Notes under the pieces: model-generated | The model's database searches: none | What the model was told of the DNA's origin: nothing | Seen by the model: the letters and a program-made list of their open reading frames with translations, nothing else | In this document: piece by piece, positions 7,401-59,000 of the stretch | Position numbering within the stretch: position 1 is the stretch's first letter | How the letters are laid out: each line of letters starts with the position of its first letter | Translations under genes and position numbers: made by a program | Origin: Jaminaea rosea | Taxonomy: Eukaryota; Basidiomycota; Exobasidiomycetes; Microstromatales | Length of the DNA stretch: 64,000 nt | NCBI RefSeq assembly: GCF_003144245.1 | Contig: NW_020289979.1 | Location: 310,001-374,000, forward strand | Direction of reading: 5' to 3'

Positions 7401-7540
7401 GCCAGCCATCGCAGGCGCGCAGCGATTCGCAGCGCATCAAGGAGAGTGGCGGCATGAGCTCGCGTATTGACGAAACTTCGCGACGAGGCGGCGATGACCC
7501 AAGGGCGATGGCTGGGAAGTACAAGCAACGACAATCTTGA
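1463..7540 (+). CDS. ATG2: Autophagy-related lipid-transfer protein ATG2
   Basis: Single-exon gene of 2025 residues. ATG2 proteins are rod-shaped bridge-like lipid transporters that feed the growing autophagosome membrane from the ER, working with ATG9 and ATG18/WIPI. Seen: a chorein-type N-terminus (residues 1-120) with LQKRIFSFVLRRLLGRYV followed by QLDWNQIEAG and a typical LEISNVELDP segment; long Ser/Glu-rich disordered insertions (for example around residues 290-310, from a TCAGGC-type repeat); and the ATG2 C-terminal region (about 1660-1810) with MMNFFHFDAAEMTLRHIKL, GWPRLFDTLNDIWTPDVK and a Gly-rich amphipathic tail. Length is usual for basidiomycete ATG2. The start is the first ATG before the conserved amphipathic N-terminus. 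The protein ends in a basic Ser/Arg-rich tail. VPS13 is the closest alternative, but it is about 3000 residues and lacks this C-terminal block. Confidence 0.95.
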   Translation: MFALPTFLGGWELPTLSSYTSLSSTLQKRIFSFVLRRLLGRYVKEGQLDWNQIEAGITRGSLEISNVELDPAAINQPLDGTPLRASGLVVGSISMQLPLTNLRSGGISITVKEPRLRLELAPTVASRQRPGPSSQSPLDAPESLADLAESLLHDDVEGRQLEQSIQDSMLSEDDTAIPGSVASGPEAQDAPQAGGFVAAIIEGLLARLSVSIQRPSIVLEHTPATSQLGKVTLDLTADNIELQSETSEEAAGVDDALPVRSKMRKLEVSGLALWCTCSPTETGKKPRPPSSGSGSGSSEDDDDEDSEGMMQMSQAVQDLSLSTASAVSHYSDATAGSASVYESAELPAARGEEAVRHRILSFGEEPIIVRMTTQRPVCTVRGTGAASNATAREPIVRNIDLSIEAGTLAGLVRPQDACGILSLVNELNCLMEGQGQHRDGTAAPRSTQPSTVALSAKVSLKAAHLLCAYGMVEADSNRQTGLDAFWARPSRTQPPLDHLRLNLSSLLVSFTQQAGLESKSNLALRIADTDLMDHHLSTKSSSTMVTLPILIFEPSLGEEAPSSLLDWVQLARESAFSTNKSSFQPYTRTTFGERAWRLKPRHRRGSSKTAETTESGAESPKHSLAVDGTFSTSEQLSYSVHLGAMQFFADLSMVSRIMPLLHSLGSVHSARSPPPSSMGGSSLMSSIETLHAERIADDDVQAKSPVALTLNCELIRTHVRVPNKHGREQDGHNDATSLRSGLLAVDIADVGFVQGAPSGVAATPPPTGLRVRYAEDTRPAEPSAEVSVGHIAVHFQSSVAGATVSTIANVGQLGRQDEESTPRLRPRIQLPDATSSIRSITRAFVPLCTASISKPTLDGLALMADDATAWSADLSRIGESSQDEQDGLRILGSRFFGSRVGLASPSMSSDSINTVQDAGQKKGAFELNMTEAEVTLLVPRQSARSAGQEASPRQLDVIGRDMRLFFDPSHEKDTASLTLTLLALFIKQRDASLPLLTPTMEQSLTRGVTPVLSLSMVLFADSASSRRESRIEPLVRDLTVSVTEDLSLFADLGAFFQSPAGAFENVEPNELTRLMVRLKNVSLQLAPATTPARAVLLLGDMQLRSRLVGDSPRSSYTFAFAETIVLVVDEANPSVEERRFRIKRPLDHWVAQGFAKVLRVDDIQGSVTMSRLTLPDVDVKVSRVRAELSACADTALAFEPLAAAFSAGQASQGMASDAEEATGDTSMDSFDDGDDAERGTGSANILDSLDEDAFRGKVLPSAASIPDMLDDDIPSHPAYYGHEPRQPTVYVETPLAEDEFFGAESIASMVETEAASETASGRGGERSQAPVLFSSNIVTIRSLDPRGIRPTPGYFSRSDLTPASRNPSANLASTLRIRVSDCDITLKLHGGYDWSSTRIAIEDEIKRVRRRLQKIKQLLDEGQQPDDSIEEATQGLMESIHISAPFDPRGAEVGQALGALNAELEEEQSETASSTSTWQPLPRGQQRSAAGSGAFAATTAAVAARRKRSKLERSHSSQIDIAFRGFALEYDVFTSGSPLTSNLDASAASVQILDNLKTSTWHAFLTEMKSNKHLPEASRRGAKMLRVQVLGMPTRRGRRRGGEGGGEQASSNPSEVELRVRAKLSPLRLHVDQDALDFLKKFFAFERRGTVPPNSSPRRSPSGSALPYIQYAEILPITLCLDYKPKRVDYSLLLRQGKAIEMMNFFHFDAAEMTLRHIKLRGIAGWPRLFDTLNDIWTPDVKANQLADVLAGIAPLRSVVNVGAGVADLVLLPIEQYQKDGRLGKGLQKGAKRFAKATALEAFRLGAKLATGTQVVLERAEHVLGGRIQGVAESGPATRREKRRDNRGSDRGSSDEEDDDYEDGLVSTIIDPSATNSSASTSAQPLSKYASPPASMGQALSQAYTGLQRGVSSAAQTILAVPMEVYESGQPGSPGGGGAGGSGGRTVVRAVPIAVLQGARGASEAVSRTMMGLAGVLEGGQPSQARSDSQRIKESGGMSSRIDETSRRGGDDPRAMAGKYKQRQS

Positions 7541-22025: not shown

Positions 22026-25000
22026 CTACGCCTGCGCCTGAGCGTGGCCTGGCGCCGGCGACGAGGTGACCGCATCTCCACCCGCACCGGCAACCCCGAT
22101 AGCCGCGCTGCCTCCCAATCCACCACGAATGTGGTCCAGCAATCCCTCGATCTCGTTGGGCATGCCCGGAGGCATCTGGCAGCGACCTTGCGCATTTCCC
22201 CTCAGCAGCTCAAAGACGCTCATGAGCAGGGCCCACGGGTGAGGGCGAGTGACCACGATCCTCTCCAAGAGCACACGCAGCACTTGTCCGCGAACCTCGT
22301 CCGTCGTCTCAGCGTGGCCAAAGATGTGGAGAATCGCCAGACTGAAGTAGGCCGAGTGGCTTGATGGGTAGCGCAGCTGGTTTGCACAGGCGGAAAGGAC
22401 GAGGTAAATACCCTCTGGGTCGAGCGTGAGGATAAGACCGCGAAGCAAGGCCAGTGTAGCATCATTCTCCGGGCTGCCAGTGAGCGCGTTGCTGCCGCCC
22501 TTCTCAAGAGTGTTGATCGCCGACGTCAGGACGAGCGCATTGACCATCGGCACATCGTAGCGGGGCTCCCACGAGCCGTCACCCATCTCTTGCTCGTCGC
22601 CAGACCCGGAGCGCAGGAGCACATCCTTGAGCGAGGCCGGGAAGCTGCTAGGCGATCGACTCTGGCCCCACAGTGCCAGCGCCGACTTGAGCTCGGCAGG
22701 CAGCGCCCCTTCGTAGTCACTGAGCACAAGGGGCGGCGACGACACCTCGGGCAGGCGGTCGATCTTGAGGTTGGGCGCAAAGGGATCCGGCAGACGACGG
22801 TCTCGAGGGAAAGCGCTGAGCACGAGGTTGCGCATCTGCGTGCACGTGTAGGGGACCAAGTCGCACAGCGAGTGATGGTACGCTGCGAGGAAGTCGGGGA
22901 AATCGTGCAGCAAGACGAGGAAGATGCGTAGAGTCCCGCGGTAGAGGGAGCGCGACGTGTCTTGCAACTCGGCCTTGCGAAGAATGGGGCCCAGGAAGCG
23001 CAGCAGAGAGCAGAACAAGCGGTGGAACGCCGCCCAGCCATGCTGTCTGTTGGCAAGCAGCTTGGGCATGAAGAGGCGGTGCGAGATGAGGCTCATCCAC
23101 GAAAAGGTGAATCCGGGGAAGAAGCTGGGCTGTAGCGTGTTAAGTGTGTTGCTGATGGCGAGGAGCGACTGCTGGTACGTCGTTTGCAGGCTCGATTCGG
23201 CCACGTGCAGGTCATGAAGCAAGGTCGAGAAGAAGCGGAAAAATGGCTTCTGCTGGAAGTGTGGGCCAAGCTCCTCGTGCGACTGGGCCAATACCAGCAC
23301 GACGATGGAGAGAATTTTGGTCAAGTAGTGCACCTTGGCCTGGTCGTGATTGACGCCAGCCGGATCCGAGTGGTACTTGATCATCAGCACGACCATCTTT
23401 GAGAAGGCGTCCACCGGCGAGAAGATGCCCGTGGCCAGCGATCCACCTGCAGCCTTCTGCTTGATGTAGGAGTCGACGCCCACCTCTGTGCAGACGCGAA
23501 TGAACATGGAAGAGATTTCTTCGCCCTTGAGGATACCCTGCGCTTGAAGCTGAGTGACAAAGTCGATGAAGGACTTCTCTGCGTTGGGCGAGTGCTGGAA
23601 GAGGCGGACCCACTCGGCGAAGCAGAACGAGAGCTGCTCGCGGAGAGCGGCGTTGCCCACGTCAGCCTTGGTGCCCTTGAGCCCGTCGAGCTCCTCGAGG
23701 AATTGCGTCGCCGTAGCCGTCGCCTTGCCCTGCTGAGCTGCGCGCTCGAGCGCCTCGATGATGTTGGAGAGCTGGCCCCGAGTGGCACAGGGGGGATCGC
23801 GAAGACACTCCAACGCAAGCTTGGCCGCAAAGTCGACCATCGCTGGCTTAAAGTCGCGCATGATCAGCTTGGTGAGCTGGACGTCCGTCTCGGCAATGTT
23901 CATCAATCCAGCACGGACGAGGCTGACAGTGACGGGGACGTTGAACTTGCGCTCGTCCTCGGCGTACACGAGCCATGCCGTCACTTCCTTGGCGACCTTG
24001 ATCGAGACCTCGCACAGACGCTCCAAGAGAATGACGTAGACGTCACGCGCCAAGCCCGTCTCGCTCTTGAACAGCAGCTGAACGACCTTTTGCGAGAATG
24101 CCAGCGCAGCCTCGTCGCGGTTCATCGACTGCGAGGCGATGACAGGAACCTGGCGCACCACGTCGCGCAGCTCGTGGCCTTGAGGAAGCGTCGTGATGCC
24201 CTCATCCGGCCCCGCCTGCGCGAGTAGCTGCTCAATCTCGACGACGCACTGATTAAACTTGTCCAAGCTCTGCTGAGCGGTGAGAGCCCCGCCCTCTTCG
24301 TACGCGCCATCGGTGATTGCCTCTGGCCCGCCCGTACCACTCGCCGCGCTCGCTGCTGCCGCTACTGCAGCCGCGGCGGCGTGACGCTCGTCCTCTCCGC
24401 CTCCCATCGACGGCGTCCTTGCAAAGTTGCCAAAGTCCTGGTACACGCGCAATTGCTGTGGTTGCAGGCCCTCGTGCTTGAGGCGAAGGCCCTCGGGCAG
24501 CGTAGCAGCGTATTGAGACGTCGTGAGTGCGCCCGCGTCCCAGAAGAAGCCTCGCCCGCGCTGGCGATGCTCACGGCGAGAGCTGTACGCATTGGCCAAG
24601 CCATCGTCCACTTCAGGCATCGCCTTGTCCATCGCCGCCTTCTCAATGACCGAGCACGCCAGCTCCAAGTTGTCTTGCATGATGCCAATGACAGCCGGCT
24701 CAGGGAACGTCTGCTCGGTGAACCCACTCTGCAAGAAGAGCGTACGCGCATTACCGACCATGCTGGCTCTGAGTGGCTCCTTGCAGGTGACCAAAGCCAG
24801 ACTTCCCGCGAGGTTGGCGGCCATCTGGTGTGCAGCATCGCGCATCTTGTTCTCGTCGCCCTCCATGGCAAAATCCTTTGTGACGAGCTCACGCGTCGAT
24901 ATGGAGGCGATGGTGACGGAACGCTCCACGACGGGAGCGACAATCTCGCGGATGGCGCGGTCGATGGCGACGTAGACGAGGCGCTTGATGGCCGAGTTTT

Positions 25001-28000
25001 GAAACAGAGCCAGCTGCGGATTGATCTGAATGTAGTGCGGCAGGTTTTGCAGCATTTGCGAAAGCGATTCCGTGTAGGCACCTGCGGCTTGCATGGCTTG
25101 CTCGCTGGGCTGCTGCTGGGGAGGAGGGCGGCGTTGATCTCTGGCGCCGAGAGCAAGTCGCTCCATCTCCGAAGTCGGTGGCGCACCCTCGATGGCCTGC
25201 TGCTGCTGCTGGAGGGCGAGGTGAGGTTGTTGCGCTTGAGGAGGAGGAAGGAGCTCGCGCGAGCGGATGATGGACGACGGTTGAATGTCCTTCAGATCGA
25301 CGCCGAGACTCTTGCAAAGGACTTCGATCTCGAAGCGCAAGTTGAGCTTGAGCTCCGGCAGCTGGTAGAGCTCGGCGAGCACGCGCAGCACAGCATTGAG
25401 CCAGGGGTTCGGCAGCTTGAAGACTCGTGACTTGCTGCACTGCTCGAGAACCTTGGCAACGAACGGAACAGCGACGATGAGACGTCCCGAGTCGTATCCC
25501 TCAATGAGCAGCAGCTTGAAATCGATGTTCTTGAAGCGGATAGGCCTGTCCCGGGCGAGGGTGATCAGACCGAGCCACGATCCAATGTTTTGCAAGGCCT
25601 TGCGACTCTGCAGCGTCGAGACAGTCGACTCCGAGTTGATGAGGCGCTGCGCCAACGCCAACGTCTCGCGGAGCACGTAGGCATCGAGCTTGGCGTCTCC
25701 GACTGCCTGAAGGAAACGCAGGTAGAGGCCGTGGAAGTTGGGCTCGAGCTGACAGCGCTCAAGCGTGAGGTAGTGGGCGAACCAGCGGAAGATGCGAGCC
25801 GTCAGTACAGGCCGGACGTCGGCGAGCTTGCCCTCGAGGTTAGAGGGCGAGAGGTTGTTGATCGCGAACAGGACCTTGTCCGACGCTTCCTCATCAGGCT
25901 CGACTTGCTCTTCGCTGCCGAAAGGCTCCGCTCCTGGGTCGACGGCAGTGAATGCGGGCCGATTGGCGCCATTGCTGTCAGTAGTGGCGACCGCCTCTGC
26001 CGTCACTGGGGCCTGGGCCGCGCGGTTGAGGATAGCTGTGACCTCCGAGTGAGGCGGCAGAGCCTGCAAAGCTTGGGCCAGCTGCGGCCAGTCCTGCAGC
26101 CGCCCCTGGAAGCGTTTGAGAGCTTCGAGGCCAAACTCAAACATGGGCGAGCCGGGCTGCGTTCGCAGGGCGTCGAGACAACCGCGAATCGCGATACCGA
26201 GCGCGACGTAGTCAATGAGCGAATGTTGGATGAGGTCACCAAACAGGTGAGCCGTCAACCTGAGCTCGGTCGGCGGGTAGCTCTTGATGTACCGCTGCTC
26301 ATCAAAGAGCGTGTGGACCATGCAGGCAAACAGCTCCGTGTCTTGCGTACGCTCCGAATTCTTGAGGCGCTGCAGAATGGCAACGACGTCCTCGACGCTG
26401 AGCTCCTGCTTGTACATACGTCCGAATGTCTCGTCGCACTCTTCGTGTATTTCTTGGGCGAATGAAGCGACCTCCATGCCTGGTTCCTGGCTCTCAGAAG
26501 CACGGATGGGCAGAAGACGAGGGTGAAGCTGCAGAGCCAGATTGCGTACCATCTTGAACGCCTCGATATCCTCCGCCGACATGCTTTCGCCGTGCGTGCG
26601 GAGGCGGCGCAGAAATGTAGCGACAGTCTGCACAGAGGGAGCGACGAATTGCTGTTGCTGTTGCTGACTTGCATCCTGCTCCTGCAGCGCCAGCTCCTCC
26701 TTCAGCTTCTCGCTGAGAAAGTCCAGTGTGGCCCGCATGAATGTCGTGCCATGCTCATGTATCAGCCGCTCGAGGAAGAGGTCCGCGTTCAAAATCTCTC
26801 TGCGTGAGGCCAAAGCCGCCACGTCGAGTGCAAAGAAGAATGGCTTGGCCGGGTCTGCTCGAGCTTCGAGTAGAGCAGGCAGAGCCTTGAGGTCTTGGGC
26901 AACATCAACGATGCGCGTCACATTGGCCGGGTTGTTGAGATAGCTGCGGACGAGGCTCTGCAGGACGAAAGTCCGGTTCGTCTGGTAGGAGATGTGGAAG
27001 ACGAGCTGGTGTCCCGGGGCGCTTGAGAGGAACATGCTCATGAGCTTTTGGGAGAGCTCCATGTGGATGGGGTTCCAAGGCTCAGGAATCTGGACGAGGC
27101 CGATGAGAAGCAGCTCCGGCGCCTCCTTGATGAAGCGCTCCAGCAAGTGCGTCACGCCCTGCTTGACGTCTGGCTGCTGATCCGCTGCGAGCAAAGCCAA
27201 CGTCTCTACGAGGTCCAGCGAGTTCCACGTCGCACGCTCGCAAGCTGCGACTGACTGACGAATCGTCGTGCTCGCTCTCTGTACATCAGCAGACGTCACG
27301 ACGCGCCTTCCTGGTACCGCTGCAAACGAGAAAGTGTCGGCGTCGAGGCCCAACAGGCCTGAGAGTATGGTGAGCTGAAGAATCTTTTGGTTCCAAGGGC
27401 CCCAGAGACCAGTGACTGCCGGGGCCTGAGGCGTCGATGGCGCGTCATAGGACGAGGCGAGCAGCGCCGCCGCAAAGCCTGACCAGTCGGCGTTGGCCAG
27501 AGGTCGGAAGCCTTCGAGGTCATCCAGCGCTCGGATTGCGCGTGGCCAGGTGACGGGTCTGAACGTTGAGATTGCTCGCACAAGGAGCGACCAATTGGTG
27601 ACGTTGTCGCGGCCGAGATCGTCCGGCGAGACGGCGAGGAGGCCGGCAAAGAGGTGGGCGACGGCGTGCTCGTCCGGAGGAGATGACTCTGTGAGGCCAA
27701 AGCGCGCAAAGATGGCGCGAACGGTCTCGACGTTGGAGATCCCAGTAGGGCCCAGGTCGGCGAGAAATCCCGGCAGACTCTTTTTGATCCTGAAATTGGC
27801 CAGCGCCTCGATGAGGGCCCGAGAGAAGGCTTCTGACCCAACACGCTCTGCGGCCGAGGCTACCAACGTCCTCCTCTGGGTGCGGCCAAGGACAGGCGCA
27901 TCCGCACCATCGCCGTCGTTAATGAGCTGCTGTAAGAAGATACTGAGTTGCTTCGGGCTGAGTGGCTCATTGGATGTCGGTCGAAGAGCATTGAGCGCAG

Positions 28001-28579
28001 CGCCCAGCACTGCGGAGCCTGTGCCGCCTCCTCCATCTGGAGGGGCTGCGGGCTGATTGTTCATCCCGCTGCTGCTGCTGCTGCTGCTGCTGAATCTGGC
28101 CGCCCACTGGACGGCAAGCCTGTTGCGTCTCTCAGTCGCTGGTGAAGTTGGCGATGTAGGAGCTGCGAGAGCCCAGAGGAGCACAAGTCTCTCTCGCCTG
28201 TCGAGATGATCAAAATCCTCGAGGGGAGGTACGTCGCTGCACTTTGCGAGAACGTCGGCGAGTAGAGATGCTGACCGCGTATCCTGTGAGCAGGCCTTAA
28301 GCTCAAGCGCTAGCAACTGCTGAAGGACGCTGGAATTGTCAGAGGTAGCGCGAGCGTCGAGGAGCTTTTCGAGAAGCGCGACGTAGACGTCAGGACCGAA
28401 ACGTTGGCAATGCTGCGCGAAAGGCGTGAGTGTGGTCAGCGATGGGCTGTAAGCTTTTGCTCGGTGCACTCTTCGCCATCACTCACCCTCCGAAGCTCTT
28501 CCTGGTATGCTGCGAGATTGTCTGGGGTGACTGTCGAGATGAGAAAGTTGACCTGACTCTTGACGACGGTGAGATCGCC
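22026..28579 (-). CDS. NOT1: CCR4-NOT complex scaffold subunit NOT1; start codon unresolved
   Basis: Scaffold of the deadenylase complex that shortens mRNA poly(A) tails. Exon 2 (28412-22026) encodes 2128 residues. A 74-bp GTGAGT...GCAG intron (28486-28413) joins it to exon 1, whose frame VKSQVNFLISTVTPDNLAAY...EELRR continues smoothly into HCQRFGPDVYVALLEKLL; this matches the extreme N-terminus of NOT1 proteins. Seen later: the N-terminal HEAT region, a MIF4G-like CAF1-binding region (about residues 860-1075 of exon 2), the CN9BD/DUF3819 helices (about 1160-1290) with a Gln-rich segment just before, and the C-terminal NOT-module region (FLVLLHDFPDFLAAYHHSLCD, then NLVLSAFPRDRRLPDPF). The 5' boundary given is the last codon that looks conserved. 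The frame stays open to at least 28837, but holds no ATG (see findings). Identity is certain, the start is not. Confidence 0.9.
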
Positions 28580-45230: not shown

Positions 45231-47548
45231 CCTCCCAACGGCTCCAAAGGCGCAAAGAATGACGGCGAGAGGGAGGTGCGAGCCGGTTGAAGGCGGGCAC
45301 GATATGGAGGCGTTTGCGTGCAATGAGTGTACACCACCTCCTTTTCGGGGGATGGATTTGAGAGCGAGACCCGGCCGAGTCGGCTCGACGCGATCCTTAT
45401 TTGGACCTTGGATAAGGGTAAGCCTGCGGGAGTTTGAGCAGCGCTGAAGTTGAGCCTTCGTTGTTGCTAGAAGAGAGAGAGGAAGGGACGGTAAGAAGTG
45501 CTCGCTGCGTTTGGCAACAACAAGGAGGGCGCCTGTAATTCTTCGCCTGCCCTGCTCAGGGTTCTGGGCAGACAAGGGGACAGGAGACTGGCTAACGGCC
45601 GGTCGGCGAACGGACCGAATCTTGACAGCGAGCTAACCGCTGATAGCGAGTAGCCGGTCAGCACGCAAGCAAAGCGAAACGCAAAGCGGTCCCGTGGTCT
45701 GGACAAGTGTGAGCCGGCGATAGTCTGGATTGGGCGTGCGACGATCGAGGTAGGCTGTCAAGAGCGAGGAGGGACAAGCAGAGGGCGGGGTACGGAGAAA
45801 GAGAGAAAGCGCCCGCTGCAAAGCGGGTCTCTGGTCTCTGCCTCTGCGTGTAGTTCGTACATTGTGCCCGTGCGCTAAGGCTAGCTAGCTCCGACGGTCT
45901 TCGCAGTATATGTCTGGACGCACAGTAAGCTCGGCGCTCTCGCATTGCCGGAATGCCACGGGCGGCTAGACGATGTTCAGTGTGCCTTCTTTCTTTCGCC
46001 ATACGAAGCGAGAGGAGGGAAGGCCAAAGGGGGGTCTTTGGCATTGCGCGAATTGAGGCGCGACTGTACGAGAAGCAGCGGCGGCGCCGCCTGCGTCGCA
46101 CTTGTAGTTGGCGCACCTGATCGAGCAATCGCCCCGTGCACAATCAAGGGTTGGGCTGCAAGAAATGACACGATGGAGAGAAAGGCGCAGTGACCTCACG
46201 AAGCGCCTCCCCTCTCGTGTTTTCTCAACTCAGGTTTCAGACTGCGACGTTCCGATGTATCTTCCGATGATTGCCGCTGCACGAAGTAGCCTCTAGGCGA
46301 GAGGGCGCAGGTGCGACCCGCCTGCAGCGGGCTTCGCCGCTGTCTCCAAAAGCCGCGGCCCCGTGGCTGCAACTGCGCCCTTGTCGCCTCGATTGGCGAT
46401 GCAACGATGGTCTCAAGACGCCAAGGGCAAGCTCACTCGGCATCGTCAGCGGAACTACAACAATGGCTGAGCCAGCGGGCTGTCATGGCTCGTGAGCATC
46501 AACTCAGTGCAGTGCTCTGGCGGCCAACACGGCTGATGCTGAGAAGGAGTCGCTCTCATCTGAGCCATCGTCATCAATGAACGTCGAGATCAGCCAAGTC
46601 AGCTCGCGAAGGGGAGAAAGGCAGGGGAGCGAGCTAGCGAGCCCGCAGCTGGATCAGCGGGCCCGCGATACCGCCAAGGCGAGTGCCGAAACGAGGGTGA
46701 GAGCGAGGGTCATAAGCGGCGGAGCAGCGGAGTGACACCATCTCACGACCCCTGTGACGACGACGATCGAGCGTCCGCCTGTGGCGCGACGTCTTTGCGG
46801 TCTCCCGCTCGAGAACCTTGTGTCGTTCAACACAGGAAAAACAATGAGCCGCCCATTCCTGCCGTGCGCACCGCTCTTTCGTCACCAAATGCTGATTGGA
46901 CGTCTCGGGGCCGTCAATTGTCACCCCCTTATCTGGCTGGCAGCCTCAGTGGCGGTCGGCAAACACGGAGCGAGAAGAACAGAGCAAGGCACGGCCCTTT
47001 CTCTAAGCGTCGCCGCCTCGCAGCATCGATGCATCGCAGTTTCGTCGCCTACGCCCAAATGGCACCCGTCCACTGGACAGGCTTAGGAATCGCCGTGTGA
47101 TGAAGAGGGCGATTGGACGAGGACGGAACCAGGGATATGGATCAAGGCATCACCTGCGTCTAGTGCATGACATGACGACCGGCGGCGATGATGGTGATCT
47201 GGCCATTTCGAGGAGTGGCTTGCTGACTCTGGCAGGCAGGGTATGATGAGGCTTTTCTGGGATCTTGCAGCTGCGTCGCCCTGCCCTGTACACATGCACT
47301 TCCATGCGATTGATTGCATGGGAATATGCGATGCGATGACAAAGGCCCGGCCATATCTGAAAGCGCGCCGACTCAAGAGTTGCAGGAGATTCCGGAGCGA
47401 AACAAGCCGGAGCGGCGATTCGAAGAATCTTGGCTCCGTTCCGTGCTCTCAATCGTCAGTCCGTCCTCCCTTGACGCCGCCAAATGAGATTTCGACGTTG
47501 CGGCTCGCAGCACAATTCGACATTTCCAATAGCCCGGCGACGACCAAG
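45231..47548. promoter_or_regulatory. Long gene-free region between divergent TF and DPH1
   Basis: 2.3 kb with no supported gene, the largest gap in the window. Both strands carry scattered short open frames with ATGs, unlike the ATG-free NOT1 leader. It probably holds a long promoter and leader for the zinc-cluster factor. A frame leading into DPH1 is open from 47243, but its first 100 residues look like translated leader. No tRNA, hairpin or tandem array recognised. Confidence 0.45.
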
Positions 47549-49360
47549 ATGGCAGGCTGCCACGACGGCAAGGACGGTACGAACGGCTGCGGCTGCTCAA
47601 CATCACAAACGAGTGCTTCTGAGCCGCGACGACGCTTCGCCAAGGCTGCCTCGACCTCGGCTGCGGTCCCCGCCGACATCCTGGAAGATGAGGCTCTGAA
47701 TGCAGCAATTGCCTCGATCCTCCCGCCCAATTACAACTTCGAGATTCACAAGACAATCCACCACGTTCGTCGTAATGGTGCGACTTGTGTAGCCCTGCAG
47801 ATGCCCGAGGGTTTGACTCTCTGGGCTACGGGGATAGCTGATATAGTGGAGACATTCACCGAGGCCACCACGGTCATCATGGGGGATGTGACGTATGGAG
47901 CGTGCTGCGTAGACGACTACACCGCCATGGCGCTAGGATGCGATATGCTGGTACACTATGGCCACAGTTGCTTAGTACCGGTGGATCAGACGGCCATCAA
48001 GACGCTGTACGTCTTTGTCGAGATTGCAATCGATCCGGGACACTTGGCCAAGACGGTGCGCGCCAACTTTCCTAGTGAGAGGGAGGCATTCAGGGCAAGA
48101 ATACTGGGAGGATCGCAGGGTAAAGAGGGAGAGACACAGCCTGACGAGTCTGCATTGAATCAAATGGCAAAGGTCCAGATCGGAGTCGAGGAAGAAGGAG
48201 TACATGCGAGGATACAGCCTAGCCAGGGAAAGGCTGCCGATAGACCAACACACTTGGCTCTCGTTGGGACCGTGCAGTTCATCAATGCTCTGCACAGCTT
48301 ACAAGACGCCCTCGAAGCAAGCATCGAGCCAAATGACAGCGCCGAGCAAGCGCAACGTCTGCTCTTGACGTCTGGCGAGCCATCGGCCGCCTCTCCATCA
48401 GCCATCCCTTTCCCCCTCCCTGCTCTCGGCCGCTACACGGTCACCATTCCGCAAATCAAGCCTCTATCACCTGGCGAGACCCTAGGCTGCACCTCTCCGC
48501 GCTTGCCTTCAGATGTGGACGGGGTCATCTACGTAGGGGACGGACGCTTCCACCTCGAGAGTGTCATGATTGCCAACCCGCGCCTCCCGGCTTTCCGATA
48601 CGACCCGTATACCAAGCGCTTTGTCAGGGAGCTGTACGACCATGCCGAAATGAGAAAGACGAGGGGGGAGGCAGTCAGGAGGGCGAAGGAGGCACTACCC
48701 TCCGGAAAGCAGGACGTCGTGGCGCACGGGCCGGCAGAAGCAGAGAGCAACGGCGACAAGAAGGTGTCAGTCATGTCTGCTTCAGCACCCGAGGCAAATG
48801 CCTGGGGCTTAATCCTCGGCACCCTCGGACGACAAGGCTCCCTCTCCGTCCTCTCGCACTTGTCCTCCCTCGTCGGCCCACGCGCCTCCTTCGTTCCCAT
48901 CCTGCTTTCCGAGCTCTCACCCTTCAAGCTCTCCCTCTTCAACCGATACGATGCAACGTCCCTCTCCACCTTCGTTCAGACCTCCTGCCCTCGCTTGAGC
49001 ATCGACTGGGGGTCTGCATTCGATCGACCTCTGCTCAGCCCGTATGAGGCAGCAGTCGCTCTGGGAAGGACGGAAGGATGGGAAGTGGAGAAGGCCGAGA
49101 AGCGGAGACTGGGAATGAGGAGGGACGTTGCCAAGGCGCAGGAGGAGGAGCAAGAAGAAGAGGTCGGACGAGAGGAGGGAGGCGACTACCCGATGGACTT
49201 CTATGCTGACGACTCGAGAGGCCCCTGGACTCCCAGACACGGGAGGGGAATGGCAGCGAGGAAGAAGGCGCCTGGGGCCACGTCGAATCGCGAGCTGCTC
49301 AAGGCGAGGATGAGGGAGGCACAGGCCAAGAGAGCGGCGGCGGCGGCAACGGCAGCGTGA
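47549..49360 (+). CDS. DPH1: Diphthamide synthesis enzyme subunit DPH1
   Basis: Single exon, 603 residues from the ATG at 47549. Dph1-Dph2 is a radical SAM-like iron-sulfur enzyme that transfers the 3-amino-3-carboxypropyl group of SAM to a His of eEF2, the first step of diphthamide synthesis. Seen: [28 protein letters not shown], then the three cluster Cys regions: [15 protein letters not shown] (about 119), [12 protein letters not shown] (about 313) and [14 protein letters not shown] (about 478). [17 protein letters not shown] and LGTLGRQGS are also present. The spacing between the first two Cys is about 190 residues, larger than in yeast or human, owing to a polar insert. The N-terminus has a Cys/Gly-rich stretch ([13 protein letters not shown]), and the C-terminus is Lys/Arg/Glu-rich. 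An upstream in-frame ATG at 47243 is less likely. Confidence 0.93.
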
Positions 49361-50757: not shown

Positions 50758-53700
50758 CTACGACGAACCGCTTCCCCCTCCTCCTTGCCCAGCCCCGGTA
50801 GGCGTGAACACCCTGGTATGAAGCTCGGCCTGCTGTCGTTCGTACTGATCCATGAGATCCTGAATGGCAGCGTTACTCTTCAACCTCCTCATCTTGGGCC
50901 TAAATGAGTTCCCACCAGCAGCAGGATCATGGAACCGGGCGAGAGCTGGCGCGCCTGATGACTCTTGGGCGCGCATTCCTGCTTGAGCACGTTGTTGCGC
51001 CTCTTCGAGGGAAATGCTGAGCGGGAGCAGAGGGGCCGACGTAGAGGAAGAGGCGGCATCGTGACTCTTGCGTCGCATGGGCTGCGAGGGTGATGCTCCT
51101 TCAGCAGCTTGCCCAACGCGTGTTGAGCCAGCCGCGGCGTCGGCTGCCTCGCGCCTCTTGTCCGTTGCAACGTCGTCATTCTCCATCTCTGTCACGGCAG
51201 AGTCGCCCACACCGAGCGCGGCACCGACTGCTTTGCCTGGTTGAACAGCTGCCGCCACCTTTGAAGAGCGGCGACGATCCCCTTCTGAAGAGCCACGGCG
51301 ATGAAGCTCCCAGTCCTCATCCGAGTCGTCGTCTCCACGACTGCCAGGGACTTTCTTGCTGGCTGTCCCTTCCTTGCCGCTTTTGACTGCAGAGCCGCCG
51401 CCGCCGCCAGAGGGCGTGTCTACCTCTGTGTCACTCTCAGGCTTTCCCTCTTTCCAATCTCCCCTCCTGACTCCAGTGCGAGGCTCGACCTTCTCCCCTT
51501 GCGTGTTGCCCATATTTTCTCTCATCTCCTGATCCATCCTGCCGCGCGCATCCTTGCCAACTTCAGCAGGGGCACGCCCGCCCACCAATCGCTTATCAAG
51601 AGCGGTTCGCACAAAGTGACGACAGCTCTGCAGCGCCTTGCGCGAGGCATCGAGGAATAGGAAGGCCTGGAAGACGTGCACGCAGTCCTCGTAGAGCTCG
51701 TGACGGACCGCTACGCCTGCAAGAGAAGCCTTGTGCGCTAGCAGGGTGACCTCGTCGCGGAGACATTCAGCGTCGCCGCATTGAATGAGTAGCGGGGGCA
51801 GGCCACGCATGTCTCCAAAGAGCGGGGAGGCGTAGGGGTGCGTGATGTACTTGTCGAGATTGTCCCCCAAATAGGCCCGCACTGGATTCATGTGGTCGTG
51901 CGACCCGGGTACGACGAGGTAGTCGTAGGCCGAGTTGGTGTCCCAGCTGTCGCATGACATGGTGAGGTCAACCCATGGACTGAAGAGGATCGCGCCGGAG
52001 GGCAAAGGGTAGCCGTTGTCGCGCAGGTAGTACATGAGGGCCGTGGCGAGCCCACCGCCTGCCGAGTCTGCTCCGAGGACGATGTTGCTGGCGGGGATGC
52101 CGAGGTCGTCTGTCAGCCGGAACCAGGCGGCAACGCAGTCGTGAAGTGGACCAGGGAACTTGCAGCCGGGAGCAAGGCGATAGTTGATGGCGAAGACGCC
52201 TGAGCGAGGAGCGAGGAAGAAGCGTGTCAGCGGTTGCTCTTCCGCCCTTGATGTCGTCGCGTCGCGTACTCACGGCACTCGGTGTACTTGGACAGCGAGA
52301 TGGTCACGGGCCTATGCGTCACAGCCGACATGACAAAGTACGCCCCTCCATGGATGTACAAAATGACCCTCTCTGTCCCCTTTGCCTTGCCACCACGCCA
52401 CTCAGCCTGCAATCGCCTCCAAGTCTGCTTTCCCACGACCCACTCTCCGGTCAGCTCTCTGCTGCCATCCTCCTCAGCGTCTACGTCCTTGAGAAAACCC
52501 TTCAGGTTGCGTTTCTTCACCCTGAAAGTCACCGGTGTAATGAGTCCATCCTTCGGCACGGGCAGGAAAGACGCAAGCTCAAAGAAGCGCTGCATACCAT
52601 CGACGGTAGCAAATTGCGTGTAGCTGGCCGTCTCGCGGAGCAGACGCGTGAAGACGGACATCTCTATTCCCCAAGACTTCTTTGGCGGTCCGTAGATTGC
52701 ATGCGAGGCAACGGCCGAGCCGATGGTGATGCCCTGACTTACCAGCATGGGCAGATACTGCCAGGCTTTGGCGATTGTCATCGGCTCGCGCTCTTTTGGT
52801 GCAACCGTGGTGTCGGTGCGCGCTGATTGCGGAATATTCTGGCCGCGGTATTGGTCAAGCATCGTGGTGAGGGCAGAGTGGAAACCTCCACCGCCGCTGC
52901 GCTGCTTGCGAGACGCTGAACCGGCCGCGGCGCCTGCTGCACCTGCTGGGCGTGTGGTAGCATCTGAGCTGGCCGATTCGGCACCAGGGCTAGAAGGTCG
53001 TGCCGTCGTCTCTGAGCTGGTGCTGGCGCTACGTGAGACGCGCGAGTGAGGCGCGGTTGACCCGACAGGCGGCTGATGAGCTCCACCGCCGCTCGTCTCG
53101 ATGCCTTGCGCAATGGCCTCCGTACCGGGCATACCACGGCGAGGTACGTCCTCTGCACGAGCAAAGTTGCGTCGCCCGCCTCGTCTGGGACCGCCACCAA
53201 ATTCAGGCATGACGACGAGGTCGATGGACATGGCCGAGTCGTCCTTCGTCGCCGCCTTCTGGCGGTTGCGCTCCTCCTCCTCCATACCTTGCGTGCTACC
53301 ACTCGCGCCGCCGGTCTTGATCGTTGCCTGCGATGCTGCAGCCAGATCGTCTTGTCGCACCTCGTCATTTGCCAGCTCCTGCTCCGTCGATGAGAGGTGT
53401 AGGTGCGTCGCAGCTCGAAGTAGCCTGGACAGGTGGTCAGTCGACGTCTCGTCGGCAGAGTGCTCAGTGCGCAGGTCGTGGAGGCGCTGAAGATAGTGGA
53501 CCGCTTCAATGGCAGTGACGGCCTTTGCGACCTTCTGGCGCGCCGTGAGCCCCTTTAGAGCGTTCTCCTTCAGGCAGGCGCCTCGATGCTCGTCTTTGAC
53601 GTTGAGCGGCGGCAGTTCGCGTAGCCACGGGTGGGCGAGGGCTTGCTTGGCGGTCATGCGCTTCTCGGCGGGACAGAGGCATTTTCGGATGAAGTCCTTT

Positions 53701-54956
53701 GCCGTATCGCTGATGTCACTCCAGTACTCGGGCTCGAAGACGACTTTCATCTTGACGATCTCCTGGAAGAGGGTAGGCTGGTCCTCGCCATAGAAGGGCG
53801 TGTAGCCAGCCAAGAGGCAGTAGGCGATGACGCCGCTGGACCAGATATCGACTGCTGAGCCATAGCCTTTGCCGAGTAACACCTCAGGCGAGACATATTG
53901 AGGCGATCCGCACGCGGTCATGAGCAAGCCCTCCTCGGGGATGAAGCGCGACAGGCCAAAGTCAGAGATGGCGATGTCGCTCGGGTCTCCCTTGTCTCTG
54001 AGCAAGATATTCTCCGGCTTGAGGTCGCGGTGGATGACGTCGTGCTTGTGCAGATAATCGACGCCTTCGAAGATCTGCTTGACGATGTGGCGTGCGTCGA
54101 GCTCGTTATAGTGCACCTTCTCGACGAGGCGATCAAAGAGCTCGCCGCCGCGACAGAGGTCGGTGACGATGAATACGCCTTCCTTTGTCTCGTAAAGGTC
54201 CCACATCTTGATGATGTTGGGATGCTCGACTCGTTCAAGGATCTTGATCTCCTCTCTGCGGCACGAGTGAGCGATGTTCAGTTCAAGGACAGGGTCATGC
54301 GATTGCACAGTCTCGTGCCGCGCACTCACTTGAGCATGTTCTCGCTGTTCTCCTTCAAAGGTCTCTTGGCGATGATCTTGAGCGCCCTATGCTCGCCCGT
54401 GGCTTTCTCTACAACTTCCTTGACGACGGCGAAAGATCCTTGGCCTAGGACGGTCGACAAGACGTTGTACTTCTTAGACAATGGGCCGGGCAAGACGGGA
54501 GTGCCATCGCTCTCGGTCTGGAAGGGAGGGGCAAGAGATTAGTGAAGGCCCCGCGACTCCGAAGTATGATGTTGCACTCACTTCTTTGAACCAGCCTCGA
54601 AAGGCGTGGTGAAGATGATCTTGCAATTGCTGCCCGACCATTCTGACACGCTCCCTACGTTGACCTCTTACGCGGTTGCTCGTCCTCCGTCTCAGAAACT
54701 GGCCAAGCCCTCTAGATCCTTTAGGTTCGAGATCTGCGGCTGCAGCTACAGCTTCGTCGTCTGATTCGTCTCGAGGTACGGAACGGTGAGAGCGGTCGTA
54801 GGCAGGAGGCGAGGGCGATCTCCTGTCGCGAGATCGATGTCGTTCTGGTGCTTCGACCTTCTCTGACTCCCAGACTCCTTCGACTCTTCTAGTAGCTGCG
54901 TTGTTGTTGGATCTTGGAGAGTCTAGATTGGAGTCAGTGTAGTGAACTCGGCTCAT
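50758..54956 (-). CDS. CAMK-type protein kinase fused to HSL-family alpha/beta hydrolase
   Basis: Four exons, 54956-54582, 54517-54330, 54255-52274 and 52199-50758, with GT-AG introns of 64, 74 and 74 bp, all in phase; product 1328 residues. Kinase domain (about 140-410): glycine loop GQGSFAVV (150-157), catalytic ALKIIAK (Lys172), HRDLKPEN (Asp265), DFG (286), activation loop TACGSPQYVSPE. It appears complete and most like Ca2+/calmodulin-dependent kinases, whose usual APE is SPE here. After a Ser/Arg-rich linker comes a hydrolase: oxyanion HGGAYF (about 823), NYRLAPG, nucleophile GADSAGG (Ser894), acid CGDAECLRDE, and His in EDCVHVFQAF. This is the hormone-sensitive-lipase/steryl-deacetylase class. 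A disordered tail follows. One 1982-bp exon carries most of the kinase and the start of the hydrolase without a stop. The fusion is inferred from frame continuity; two overlapping transcripts remain possible. Confidence 0.85.
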
Positions 54957-55919
54957 GCCACAGACGGCCACAAAGTAGGATTGAGAAGGGGGAGATGCAG
55001 GACCTGCGGTGGCTAATGTCTCGGCGGTCTCTTGCTCGTCCTCGTTGGGAAGAGAGGTTGTCGCTCTCTCGCGAGGCGACGGCCTGCGTACGAGGAGAGG
55101 GATGTAATAGGAGAGGGATGTTGATCAGCATCACTCTCTACACGGCATCGGATCCCATGAGAGCTCTCAATGGCGGCGAGAGGGTACGAATCTTCCGCCC
55201 GCATGTCAGGGAGGAATCTGCCTGCCTGGTCCAGACAATCGTCGCCGCGGCCAGCCTGAAGCTCCGACCCTTTGCTGCGACGACGGTATCCACTGACGTG
55301 CGACCCACTCACCACCAACTACTCGATCGTGCTGCGCGATCGGACAAAGGCCAAGCGTGCTACGCTAGCTAGGCGTGAGGCTGGGCCGATGGTCTTGAGA
55401 AAGCTGCCTATGTACGACGTGGATGTACAGGTCGTAGCTAGGAAGATGAAGATGAAGTGCGAGATGGAAATGCAAATGCGGTGTTGGTTGTCAATGACGA
55501 CGACGGACAAGGCTGAAGCGTGCGTGCGGCCGCCCTCGACCGGCCTCGACCCAGACATTGCTCTCCACTCCAGTCGGCGGCCCGTGGCCGTCGGTCGCCC
55601 CTTCCGCCTCGCCTCCTCTTCGTCAGCGAGGCGCGAGGTTGACTGGGCTGGACCCGTGGGCGTGGCTTTGGTCTCGATTTCACGCAGCGCCGGACGCGGC
55701 GCGAGCGGCGGCCACCAGCGAGATAGACGCAGGCGCGTGGGGGATGCGCGAAGAAATCAGTCCTTTTCAGAGTAGACTCGACAATGTAGGGGTGGCATTG
55801 CAGGGCTCGCAGAGAATGAGAATACAGATGGAGGGCATGCGGCGGAAGAGTGGCGATGACGACTCCAAGGACGCTTGCTACGGCTGCTGATTGCCAGCTG
55901 CCTTTTGAGGTGCTCACGC
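54957..55919. other. Intergenic region upstream of the kinase-hydrolase gene
   Basis: 963 bp between its start and the eIF3a stop (same strand). It should hold the promoter of the former and the 3' UTR of the latter. No convincing coding frame, RNA gene or repeat recognised. Confidence 0.5.
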
Positions 55920-55986
55920 TCAACGAGCACCAGGTGGACGGTAAGCGCCGGCAGTCCTCTTGACCTCGGTGAAGCCGTCACCACCA

Positions 55987-56017
<31 letters not shown>

Positions 56018-59000
56018 GACGAGGAGCGGCAGAGGGGGGCGTGGAGGCACCGCTACCTGCACCACCGGCAGCCTGCTTCGCTGCCATCCTCTCTCGCCAT
56101 CCACCAGGAGCAGGAGCTGCGGCCGGGGCAGGAGCGGCAGAGGCAGCAGCTGGAGCGGGACTCGGCGCAGGGCTGCTCGATGCCGCACGGCTAGGGGGCT
56201 CACTCATGCCAGCACCGCCAGCCTGCTTAGCAGCCAAACGATCACGCCATCCTCCGGTCTTTTGTCCACCAAAGGCAGGTGCAGGTCGCTCCTCGCCACT
56301 CGCCGCAGGACTGGCGTTACGCGCCGAGGCAACAGCGCCAGCAGGGGCGCCACGGCGCCAAGTCGAGTCACCGGCGAGAGTCGGGCCCGCAGCTGCGCTC
56401 GCAGCCCTCTTCTCATTGGCACGTCGCTCCTCGATCTCCCTCTCGCGCTGACGTTGCTTCTCAGCCTGCTCCTCCAGCTTGGCCTGCCTAGCCTCAATCT
56501 CGGCCCGCTTCTCAGCCTCGAGTTCGGCCTTCTTTGCTTGCTCAATCTTGCGCTGCTCGGCGGCACGCTCCTCCTCTTCCGCCTTAATGCGCTGCAGCTC
56601 TGCCTCTTCCGCAGCACGACGCTCCTCCTCCTCTTCACGCTTGCGACGCTCCTCGCGGGCGGCGGCAACCTCCTTGCGGCGTTGCTCCTTGGCGGCCTCG
56701 ATCTTGCGCTGCGAGTCAGCACGCTTCTCAGCGAGCTCCTTGGCGCGCTTGCCCTCGATGGACTTCTTCATGTCGTGGTAGTCGGGCAAGATGCGAGTAA
56801 GACGCTTCTTGGCTTCGACGTCCGACTGGTGCTTCTCGCGGGCGGCGTCCAGGGCGACCTTGCGAGCGCGTTGGTTGTACGCGAGGTCGTCCGTCTTCTG
56901 ACGCTCGTAGTCCTTCTCGAGCAAGGGGAGCTCCTCGCGACGGTAAGCACGCTCGAGGTGGTCCATACGGCGGAAGATGACGCGCAGACGCTCTGCGAGG
57001 TCCTTCTTCTCCTTCTCGATCTGAGAGACTTGCAGCTGCACGAGCTTGTCCGTGTCCAGGTTGGCATACTCCTCTTCGGAGAGCTTGAGCCCACCCTTCT
57101 CGCGAAGCGATTGGGCCATCTTGCGCGTCTCCTCGGCGCGGACGGCTTCGAGCTCCTTCTTGATACGCTCCTGCTCCTTGAGACGCTTCTCTTCGGCCTG
57201 GCGCTTCTGTTCGGCTTCGGCTTGGGCGCGAGCACGCTCGGCCTCGGCCTTGGCCTCGTCGCGGGCACGCTCGTGAAGGAGCTCCTTGTGGCGGGCGAGG
57301 ATGGCCTTGCGGGCGAGAGCGGCCTTGTGCTCCGACTCGGCGACAGCCATGGCGCGGGCAAAGACGTCGCGCTTGGCCTTCTGTGCCTCCTCGACGACAC
57401 TGGGGTCGATGGTGCGCATGGTGCTGTCGAGGCAGGTGGCTAAGCGAGTAAGCTGAGTGCGTACAAGCTCTCCAGGCGTGGCTTGGAGACGGACAGAGTC
57501 CTGGTGGCCGCTGGACGAAGCAGCAGGGTGTGAATCGGCGCTGAAGACGTCCTCCTGGAAGGTGATGGCCTGGCTGACGTGGTCGACGCTGATGTTGAGG
57601 TGACCACGCTTGGCGGCGTTGAGGCAGAACTTCTCAATCTCCTCGCGGGTGTAGGCGTAAGGGGCCTTGAAAGAGCTGACGAGCTCCATGACCTTGTCAA
57701 GCTTGACAGCGTCGTAGACCTGGCTCAGCTGTTGGAAGAGCCTGGTGAGGATGACCGAGTGAAGCGGCTTGATGTACTTGGCCATCTCTTCATTCTCAGC
57801 GATTTTGGCGATGATGGGCTCGATCTTTGCGCAGATGGAGAGAGGGTGGAACTCGACCTCGAGGATGTCGTAGAGCTCACGAATCTCTGGGCGAACACGT
57901 TTGAGGACATTGCGGGAGAGAGCCTCCTTGAGCAGACCGGTGCGGGTGGGCGTGCGACTCAAGCCTAGGAGAGAGGTCAGACGGCCAGTGCGACTGATGG
58001 TGTCCTGATCGCCAAGGAGAAAGTCAGACTTGGACTTGTTGAGGTTACCAGTGCCGGGAGCGCTGGACGAGATGACAGGGACTGCGAGGGAGGACAGGAG
58101 GACCAGCGACGAGAGACGAGTGAGCTCGTCCTCAGTCTTGATGTTGCCACGGGCGAGAGCATAGTAGCGGCTCCATGCGGCAGCGTGGAAGAGGTTGTTG
58201 TCCGAGACCATAAAGATGCGGGAAAGCTTCTCGTAATAGTTCGCCATCATGGACGGGCGAGGCGCCTTCTTGGCCATGGTGAGCAAGTTGTGGACATCCT
58301 CGACGCTGCGGAAGGCCTCTTGCCACAGCTCAAGCTCAACGGCGGCGTTGAGTTGGGCAAATCGTGTGTCAAGGTGACGCTGCAGGGTGTCGGGGTCATT
58401 GAGGTTGATAGCATGGGTGTGATGCGACAGCCTGGTGACATTCTGCAAGTGAGTGCGGAGAAGGTCACAGAGGCGACGGAACTCAGTCTTGCGCTTAAAC
58501 TGCAAGCAGAAGCGGAGGACCCTAGAGTGGGGATGGTCAGAAGGAGGGAGATATGGTCAGAGATGGGACTGGCTGACAGTGAAGCGCCGCGCCCGCGCCA
58601 CTCACTGGTGAACAACCTGCTGGTAGGGCACTTCGAGACGAGCGTTGTTACGCAAGATGTCGAGAGCGGTACGGTAGGCCTCCCAGAGGAACTTGAGGCA
58701 GGGGGTAACCAGAGCTCGGTCGGCACGGTCCTTGTTCTCGTCCGAGGTGACGGCACCGAGAAGCATTCCTTCGGGCGTCTCGCTCTCCTCGAGGTCATCA
58801 ACATCAAGGTCGGCAGCGGCGGCCTCAGCCTTGGACTGAGCATCAGCGACGCGAGCCTCTGACAGCTTGATGAAGTGCTTGATGACATTCTCAATGGACT
58901 GAGGCTGAGTGTTCTGCGAGATGTTCTTGTACTGCAGAAGACCGTCCTTGGCAGTTCGTCCGCGACGGAGCTCGACGCAGAGATCGACGAAGCGCATCAT

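What the first reader, a model, noticed from the sequence alone, without database searches (positions are those of the whole stretch)
50758..54956. Protein kinase and HSL-type hydrolase encoded as one 1328-residue polypeptide
A complete CAMK-like kinase domain (glycine loop, Lys172, HRD Asp265, DFG) and a complete hydrolase triad (Ser894 in GADSAG, Asp in CGDAE, His in CVHVF, plus HGGAYF) lie in one reading frame. The exon from 54255 to 52274 carries the kinase core and the hydrolase N-terminus with no stop. Three introns fit in phase. I know of no standard family pairing these domains; it suggests phosphorylation-coupled lipid or sterol-ester hydrolysis. The hydrolase could also have its own start at the internal Met of EPMTIAKAWQ.
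Basis: partly seen in the sequence, partly recalled or inferred. Interest (0 to 1): 0.78.

Follow-up and report, generated by a model that had tools for sequence, protein, structure and literature searches.

The report
Fungal protein kinase–esterase fusion gene
A fungal gene appears to encode one long protein that joins a calmodulin-kinase-type signalling enzyme to an ester-cutting enzyme, an unusual pairing, but whether it is made as one protein and whether relatives share it could not be tested here.

Summary
Four exons (54956-54582, 54517-54330, 54255-52274, 52199-50758, minus strand) with three GTGAGT...CAG introns give 1328 codons without a stop. Pfam finds Pkinase (147-399, E 1.7e-75) and Abhydrolase_3 (819-1026, E 9.1e-45), both above cut-off. 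The main catalytic residues are present. The nearest solved chains are CaMK1D and esterases such as Est8. The 229-codon linker is stop-free with gene-like codon usage (0.094; coding median 0.120). Of 1032 windows outside long ORFs none was stop-free; of 1070 wrong-frame windows 5 matched it on both counts. One polypeptide is the best reading, but no transcript and no fungal relative could be reached. Steryl-ester activity rests only on a partial Say1_Mug180 match. Best mechanism: a CaMKI-type kinase tethered to an esterase, controlling it in cis or bringing it to its signalling site. Three kinase-consensus sites lie outside the two domains, 0.23 expected (a post hoc count). The CaMKI-like tail has Val where CaMK1D has Trp, so calmodulin control is doubtful. 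It is a new combination of two known enzyme families.

The parts
54582..54956 (-). Exon 1: start codon (54956) and N-terminal arm of disordered composition, aa 1-125
   Evidence: first ATG of its frame (ORF 54474-54971), G at -3
54330..54517 (-). Exon 2: start of kinase domain, glycine loop (150-157) and K172
52274..54255 (-). Exon 3: rest of kinase, CaMKI-like tail, linker, hydrolase N-terminal part through HGGAYF; open throughout
   Evidence: 0 of 2000 shuffles stop-free
50758..52199 (-). Exon 4: hydrolase catalytic core with S894, D991, H1023, C-terminal arm and stop codon
54518..54581 (-). Intron 1, 64 nt, GTGAGT...CAG
54256..54329 (-). Intron 2, 74 nt, GTGAGT...CAG
   Evidence: kinase homology continues across it
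52200..52273 (-). Intron 3, 74 nt, GTGAGT...CAG
   Evidence: hydrolase homology continues across it
53622..54454 (-). Protein kinase domain (Pfam Pkinase, aa 147-399), spans intron 2
   Evidence: 254.3 bits, cut-off 31.7; coordinates
53469..53618 (-). CaMKI-like regulatory tail, aa 401-450; Val where CaMK1D has Trp
   Evidence: alignment to residue 447; 17 of 5000 shuffles reach the tail score
52782..53468 (-). Linker of disordered composition, aa 451-679, between kinase and hydrolase
   Evidence: 82% disorder-promoting residues; coding-like codon usage
51667..52781 (-). HSL-type hydrolase region, aa 680-1026; Abhydrolase_3 at aa 819-1026 (52364-51667), spans intron 3
   Evidence: 153.4 bits, cut-off 25; coordinates
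50761..51594 (-). C-terminal arm of disordered composition, aa 1051-1328, with CaMK-consensus site S1290

Best explanation
One fungal gene encodes a 1328-residue protein in which a catalytically complete CaMKI-type protein kinase is joined by a probably flexible linker of about 230 residues to an HSL-family (Abhydrolase_3) esterase with a complete catalytic triad. Shown by sequence: the single frame, both sets of catalytic residues, the coding-like linker. Inferred: it is made as one protein; the kinase phosphorylates the protein's own arms (T92, T471 and S1290 fit the CaMK consensus) or partners held nearby; this switches or positions the esterase, which cuts a small acyl or lipid ester. Activation-loop Ser305, where CaMK1D has Thr, would be the site for an upstream kinase. 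I put one-polypeptide at about 0.85 and in-cis control at about 0.35.
For: Gene model with no stop over 1328 codons; both domains far above Pfam cut-offs; catalytic residues intact; linker coding-like and stop-free, with 0 of 1032 windows outside long ORFs stop-free; the 5' spacer toward the neighbouring eIF3a-like ORF has 3, 6 and 10 stops in its three minus-strand frames; no AATAAA, ATTAAA, AAGAAA or TATAAA in 53468-52700; 3 CaMK-consensus sites, one in each of N-terminal arm, linker and C-terminal arm, mean 0.23 in shuffles, 7 of 5000 shuffles reach 3. By analogy, a review says AMPK may phosphorylate mammalian HSL at Ser565 and so reduce its activity, and calls AMPK's role in lipolysis controversial (PMC9513423, passages); AMPK is placed in the CAMK group in PMC3591445 (passages).
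Against: No transcript, peptide or relative was available; conservation of the fusion is untested. The -1 frame of the linker is also stop-free, 11 of 2000 linker shuffles are stop-free, and one minus-strand frame of the 418-nt 3' spacer 50757-50340 is stop-free too, though with a non-coding score of -0.134. 5 of 1070 wrong-frame windows match the linker on score and openness. The phosphorylation consensus is recalled and was counted after I had noticed S1290 and T92 by eye, so the 7 of 5000 is not an unbiased test; T471 lies in a hydrophobic stretch that may be structured. The nucleophile elbow is AxSxG, so activity is not certain.
Confidence: 0.5

Rival explanations
1. The fusion is real but the two enzymes do not regulate each other: a passive gene fusion, in which the linker lets each act alone and the gain, if any, is co-expression or shared location.
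For: Long low-complexity linker (82% disorder-promoting residues); no further Pfam domain between or around them at E up to 0.1; calmodulin tail degenerate.
Against: Consensus kinase sites lie outside the domains more often than in shuffles, though that is only a post hoc motif count.
Confidence: 0.3
2. Two products come from one locus: a kinase-only transcript ending by internal poly(A) or alternative splicing, and a hydrolase from an internal start at M680.
For: M680 lies just upstream of the hydrolase region; a GTAAGT donor-like sequence sits at 52742.
Against: Linker has coding codon usage and no stop; M680 has C at -3; no common poly(A)-signal word in 53468-52700. Splicing 52742 to the TAG ending at 52664 would remove 79 nt and shift the frame (positions; only this acceptor was considered).
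Confidence: 0.12
3. Assembly or gene-model artefact: two genes brought together by a sequence error or missed stop.
For: No independent reads or relatives could be examined here.
Against: A 1982-nt exon continuous in one frame, with coding usage on both sides and in between.
Confidence: 0.08

Closest known systems
Calcium/calmodulin-dependent protein kinase I (CaMK1D, PDB 2jc6); in fungi the CAMK/CAMK1 class of A. nidulans CmkA and CmkB (PMC3591445, passages)
   Same: Best solved match, E 1.7e-76, aligned from the glycine loop through the regulatory tail; catalytic motifs kept
   Different: Ser305 for the activation-loop Thr; Val for the tail Trp; followed by a hydrolase. The fungal CAMK1 kinases were not compared by sequence
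Esterases Est8, EstD11 and E40 of the HSL family (bacterial family IV; family and origin recalled, not in the call)
   Same: Est8 1.3e-46; HGG and Ser-Asp-His triad in register
   Different: AxSxG elbow instead of GDSAG; the first about 115 residues of the query (aa 678-792) lie outside the best stretch of all 60 listed of 98 matches; fused to a kinase
BaEstB, the HSL esterase of the basidiomycete Bjerkandera adusta (PMC5552909, abstract start and passages)
   Same: Basidiomycete HSL-type esterase with Ser-Asp-His triad
   Different: 322 residues; the word kinase does not occur in that paper's main text. No sequence comparison was made here
Say1/Mug180 steryl acetyl hydrolases (PF10340)
   Same: 39.8 bits over residues 814-942, above the cut-off of 21
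   Different: Only 137 of 374 profile positions, far weaker than Abhydrolase_3

Membership tests
Eukaryotic protein kinase (Pkinase) | Glycine loop, VAIK-type Lys, HRD Asp, DFG Asp | tested here: met
   GQGSFAVV 150, K172, D265, D286; Pfam 254.3 bits against 31.7
CaMKI family | Closest to CaMKI among kinases of known structure | tested here: met
   Of the top eight of 263 matches (60 shown), seven are named CaMK type 1, 1D or 1G and one only calcium/calmodulin-dependent protein kinase; no tree was built
CaMKI family | Autoinhibitory and calmodulin-binding tail with hydrophobic anchors (anchor role of the Trp recalled) | tested here: inconclusive
   Tail aligns (score 36, 17 of 5000 shuffles reach it) but Trp is Val and amphipathicity is low
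CaMKI family | Activation-loop Thr for CaMKK (recalled) | tested here: not met
   Ser305 in CGSPQY aligns to Thr in CGTPGY; Ser could still be phosphorylated
HSL / Abhydrolase_3 | Pfam match above cut-off | tested here: met
   153.4 bits against 25
HSL / Abhydrolase_3 | HGG(G/A) oxyanion motif and Ser-Asp-His triad | tested here: met
   HGGA 823, S894, D991, H1023 aligned to Est8 and EstD11
HSL / Abhydrolase_3 | GxSxG nucleophile pentapeptide | tested here: not met
   ADSAG; AHSMG-type AxSxG lipases of other families are active (PMC9408867, abstract and passages)
NCBIfam GESAG, GTSAG and GCSAG HSL subfamilies | Curated cut-off | tested here: not met
   165.9 against 430, 106.4 against 380, 58 against 410 bits
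Steryl acetyl hydrolase (Say1_Mug180) | Pfam match over the family length | tested here: inconclusive
   39.8 bits, above cut-off 21, but 137 of 374 positions
Steryl acetyl hydrolase (Say1_Mug180) | Membrane anchor (recalled for yeast Say1) | tested here: not met
   Only one 19-residue window exceeds Kyte-Doolittle 1.2 (1.24, at residue 320 in the kinase); no dedicated membrane predictor was run

The most novel reading that the evidence does not exclude
A self-contained signalling lipase: a CaMKI-type kinase that, on a calcium or upstream-kinase signal, phosphorylates the flexible arms of its own polypeptide and thereby switches the attached HSL-type esterase, so that lipid-ester hydrolysis is wired directly to kinase signalling in one molecule.
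Probability: 0.25. Interest if true: 0.75.

Novelty: new variant of a known kind. Interest (0 to 1): 0.5.

Why it matters
In animals HSL is controlled by separate kinases (PMC9513423, passages). A fungus that carries both activities in one chain would give a simple system in which kinase control of an esterase can be tested with point mutants, and would point to the esterase's pathway through the kinase's signal. If the fusion is conserved among related fungi, it would also give a function lead for HSL-type fungal esterases without known roles.

Tried and rejected
The plasmid search gave 898 records, all under 60% identity; 5 were listed and one was opened, Variovorax, 41.1% over 66% of the query; its 8 annotated features within 3 kb are an alpha/beta hydrolase among dioxygenase, hydratase and related genes, with no kinase. 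No fungal collection was available, so conservation and horizontal origin were not judged.

Sterol-ester specificity was set aside as unsupported. A strongly hydrophobic anchor was looked for and not found. A relation between linker and C-terminal arm was tested and is not significant: score 65, 58 of 300 shuffles as high. No disorder predictor was run; 'disordered' here means residue composition only.

Literature, ten answered searches. 'Pkinase' with 'Abhydrolase_3' gave one paper each. In PMC4631099 (passages) each occurs with calpain in different proteins. In PMC2837644 (passages) both are listed as FYVE partners in a table that does not say they share a protein. Listings (20 of 26; 15 of 20) were capped. 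PMC11218826 (passages) describes plant NLR receptors with either a kinase or a hydrolase at the N-terminus, not both. PMC3482391 (passages) concerns bacterial toxins and shows no such pair. PMC2838846 (section 7 and passages) does not contain 'hydrolase' or 'lipase' in its main text; its supplements and figures were not readable here. PMC11878206 (passages) mentions kinase once, in another context. PMC3140968 (passages) and PMC11402454 (passages) were not useful. PMC3591445 (12 of 13 passages shown) lists fungal CAMK1 kinases and does not contain 'lipase'.

Full report
What is there. On the minus strand, exons 54956-54582, 54517-54330, 54255-52274 and 52199-50758 join to 3987 nt, 1328 codons and a stop, with no internal stop. 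All three introns have GTGAGT donors and CAG acceptors and are 64-74 nt long. Introns 2 and 3 interrupt the kinase and the hydrolase, and the homology runs on across both, so these two are well supported. Intron 1 rests on its splice signals and on the frame. A tblastn of the protein against the window (E up to 1) found only the gene itself.

Domains. Pfam gives Pkinase at 147-399 (254.3 bits, cut-off 31.7) and Abhydrolase_3 at 819-1026 (153.4 bits, cut-off 25); the five other matches lie within or about these stretches, and nothing matches the N-terminal arm, the linker or the C-terminal arm. The kinase keeps its glycine loop, K172, D265 and D286; the hydrolase keeps HGGA, S894, D991 and H1023. 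The best solved relatives are CaMK1D (1.7e-76) and esterases led by Est8 (1.3e-46); that the latter are bacterial family IV/HSL enzymes is recalled. Two departures from the textbook motifs matter: the activation loop has Ser305 where CaMK1D has Thr, and the nucleophile elbow is ADSAG, AxSxG instead of GxSxG. AxSxG lipases of the AHSMG type are active in other families (PMC9408867, abstract and passages).

One gene or two. The linker, aa 451-679, is 82% disorder-promoting residues. With codon usage learned from eight other ORFs of the window, picked by me from the 25, it scores 0.094 per codon, against a median of 0.120 for true coding windows (71 of 214 score at or below it); its other two frames on this strand score -0.12 and -0.17. 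Seven stretches without a listed ORF of 250 aa were used as a non-coding control; one was too short to yield windows, and some may hold intron-rich genes. Of their 1032 overlapping windows in six frames, 10 reach the score and none is stop-free. Of 1070 overlapping wrong-frame windows inside the eight ORFs, 13 reach the score, 30 are stop-free and 5 do both. Against this, the -1 frame of the linker is also stop-free, 11 of 2000 shuffles of the linker are stop-free, and one minus-strand frame of the 418-nt 3' spacer is stop-free with a score of -0.134, so openness alone is modest evidence; the codon usage adds to it. The 5' spacer toward the eIF3a-like ORF has 3, 6 and 10 stops in its three minus-strand frames. 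The internal M680 has C at -3; no common poly(A)-signal word lies in 53468-52700. I take one polypeptide as about 85% likely; this is a judgement, not a computed figure.

How it may work. The kinase tail aligns to the CaMK1D regulatory tail (17 of 5000 shuffles reach the score) but Val stands where CaMK1D has the Trp that I recall as the calmodulin anchor, and the stretch is only weakly amphipathic (rank 418 or worse of 1311 18-mers), so calmodulin control is uncertain. Three sites fit the consensus hydrophobic-x-R-x-x-S/T-x-x-x-hydrophobic (recalled for CaMKI and AMPK): T92, T471 and S1290, one each in the N-terminal arm, the linker and the C-terminal arm; shuffles of these give 0.23 on average and 7 of 5000 give 3 or more. 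I had noticed two of the sites by eye before counting, so this is a hint and not a test. By analogy, a review says that AMPK may phosphorylate mammalian HSL at Ser565 and lower its activity, and calls AMPK's role there controversial (PMC9513423, passages). Substrate: an acyl ester; sterol esters are not favoured, since the steryl acetyl hydrolase model covers 137 of 374 positions at 39.8 bits and no strongly hydrophobic anchor is seen.

Novelty. In eight searches of the held open-access library aimed at the pairing or at its parts (two listings capped) and in the papers opened from them I saw no report that pairs a protein kinase with an HSL-type hydrolase in one fungal protein. A survey of kinase-associated domains in 30 fungi, Ustilago maydis and Malassezia globosa included, does not name a hydrolase in its main text (PMC2838846), though it reports 32 domains that occur once, most of them not named in what I read. 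These are limited grounds: annotated fungal proteomes were not searchable, and the pairing may sit unremarked in public domain databases. I file it as a new combination of two known enzyme families.

Limits. Expression, conservation and activity were not tested.

Noticed in passing
52074-52057 (aa 891-896): The hydrolase nucleophile elbow reads G-ADSAG, so Ala takes the place of the first Gly of GxSxG; A and G are swapped against Est8 (AGDSAG in the protein).
   Followed up: partly
52742: A GTAAGT donor-like sequence lies inside the hydrolase N-terminal coding region; joining it to the TAG ending at 52664 would remove 79 nt and shift the frame, so it is probably a coincidence or a cryptic site.
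   Followed up: partly
aa 651-660 and 1295-1304: Similar short motifs TTMLDQYRGQ and QDLMDQYERQ flank the hydrolase on both sides; the linker and C-terminal arm as a whole are not significantly alike.
   Followed up: partly
22026-28469, 55920-58505, 47243-49360, 1463-7540: Long ORFs that look, from recall only, like Not1, eIF3a, Dph2 and Atg2-type genes, consistent with ordinary fungal nuclear DNA around the finding.
   Followed up: no
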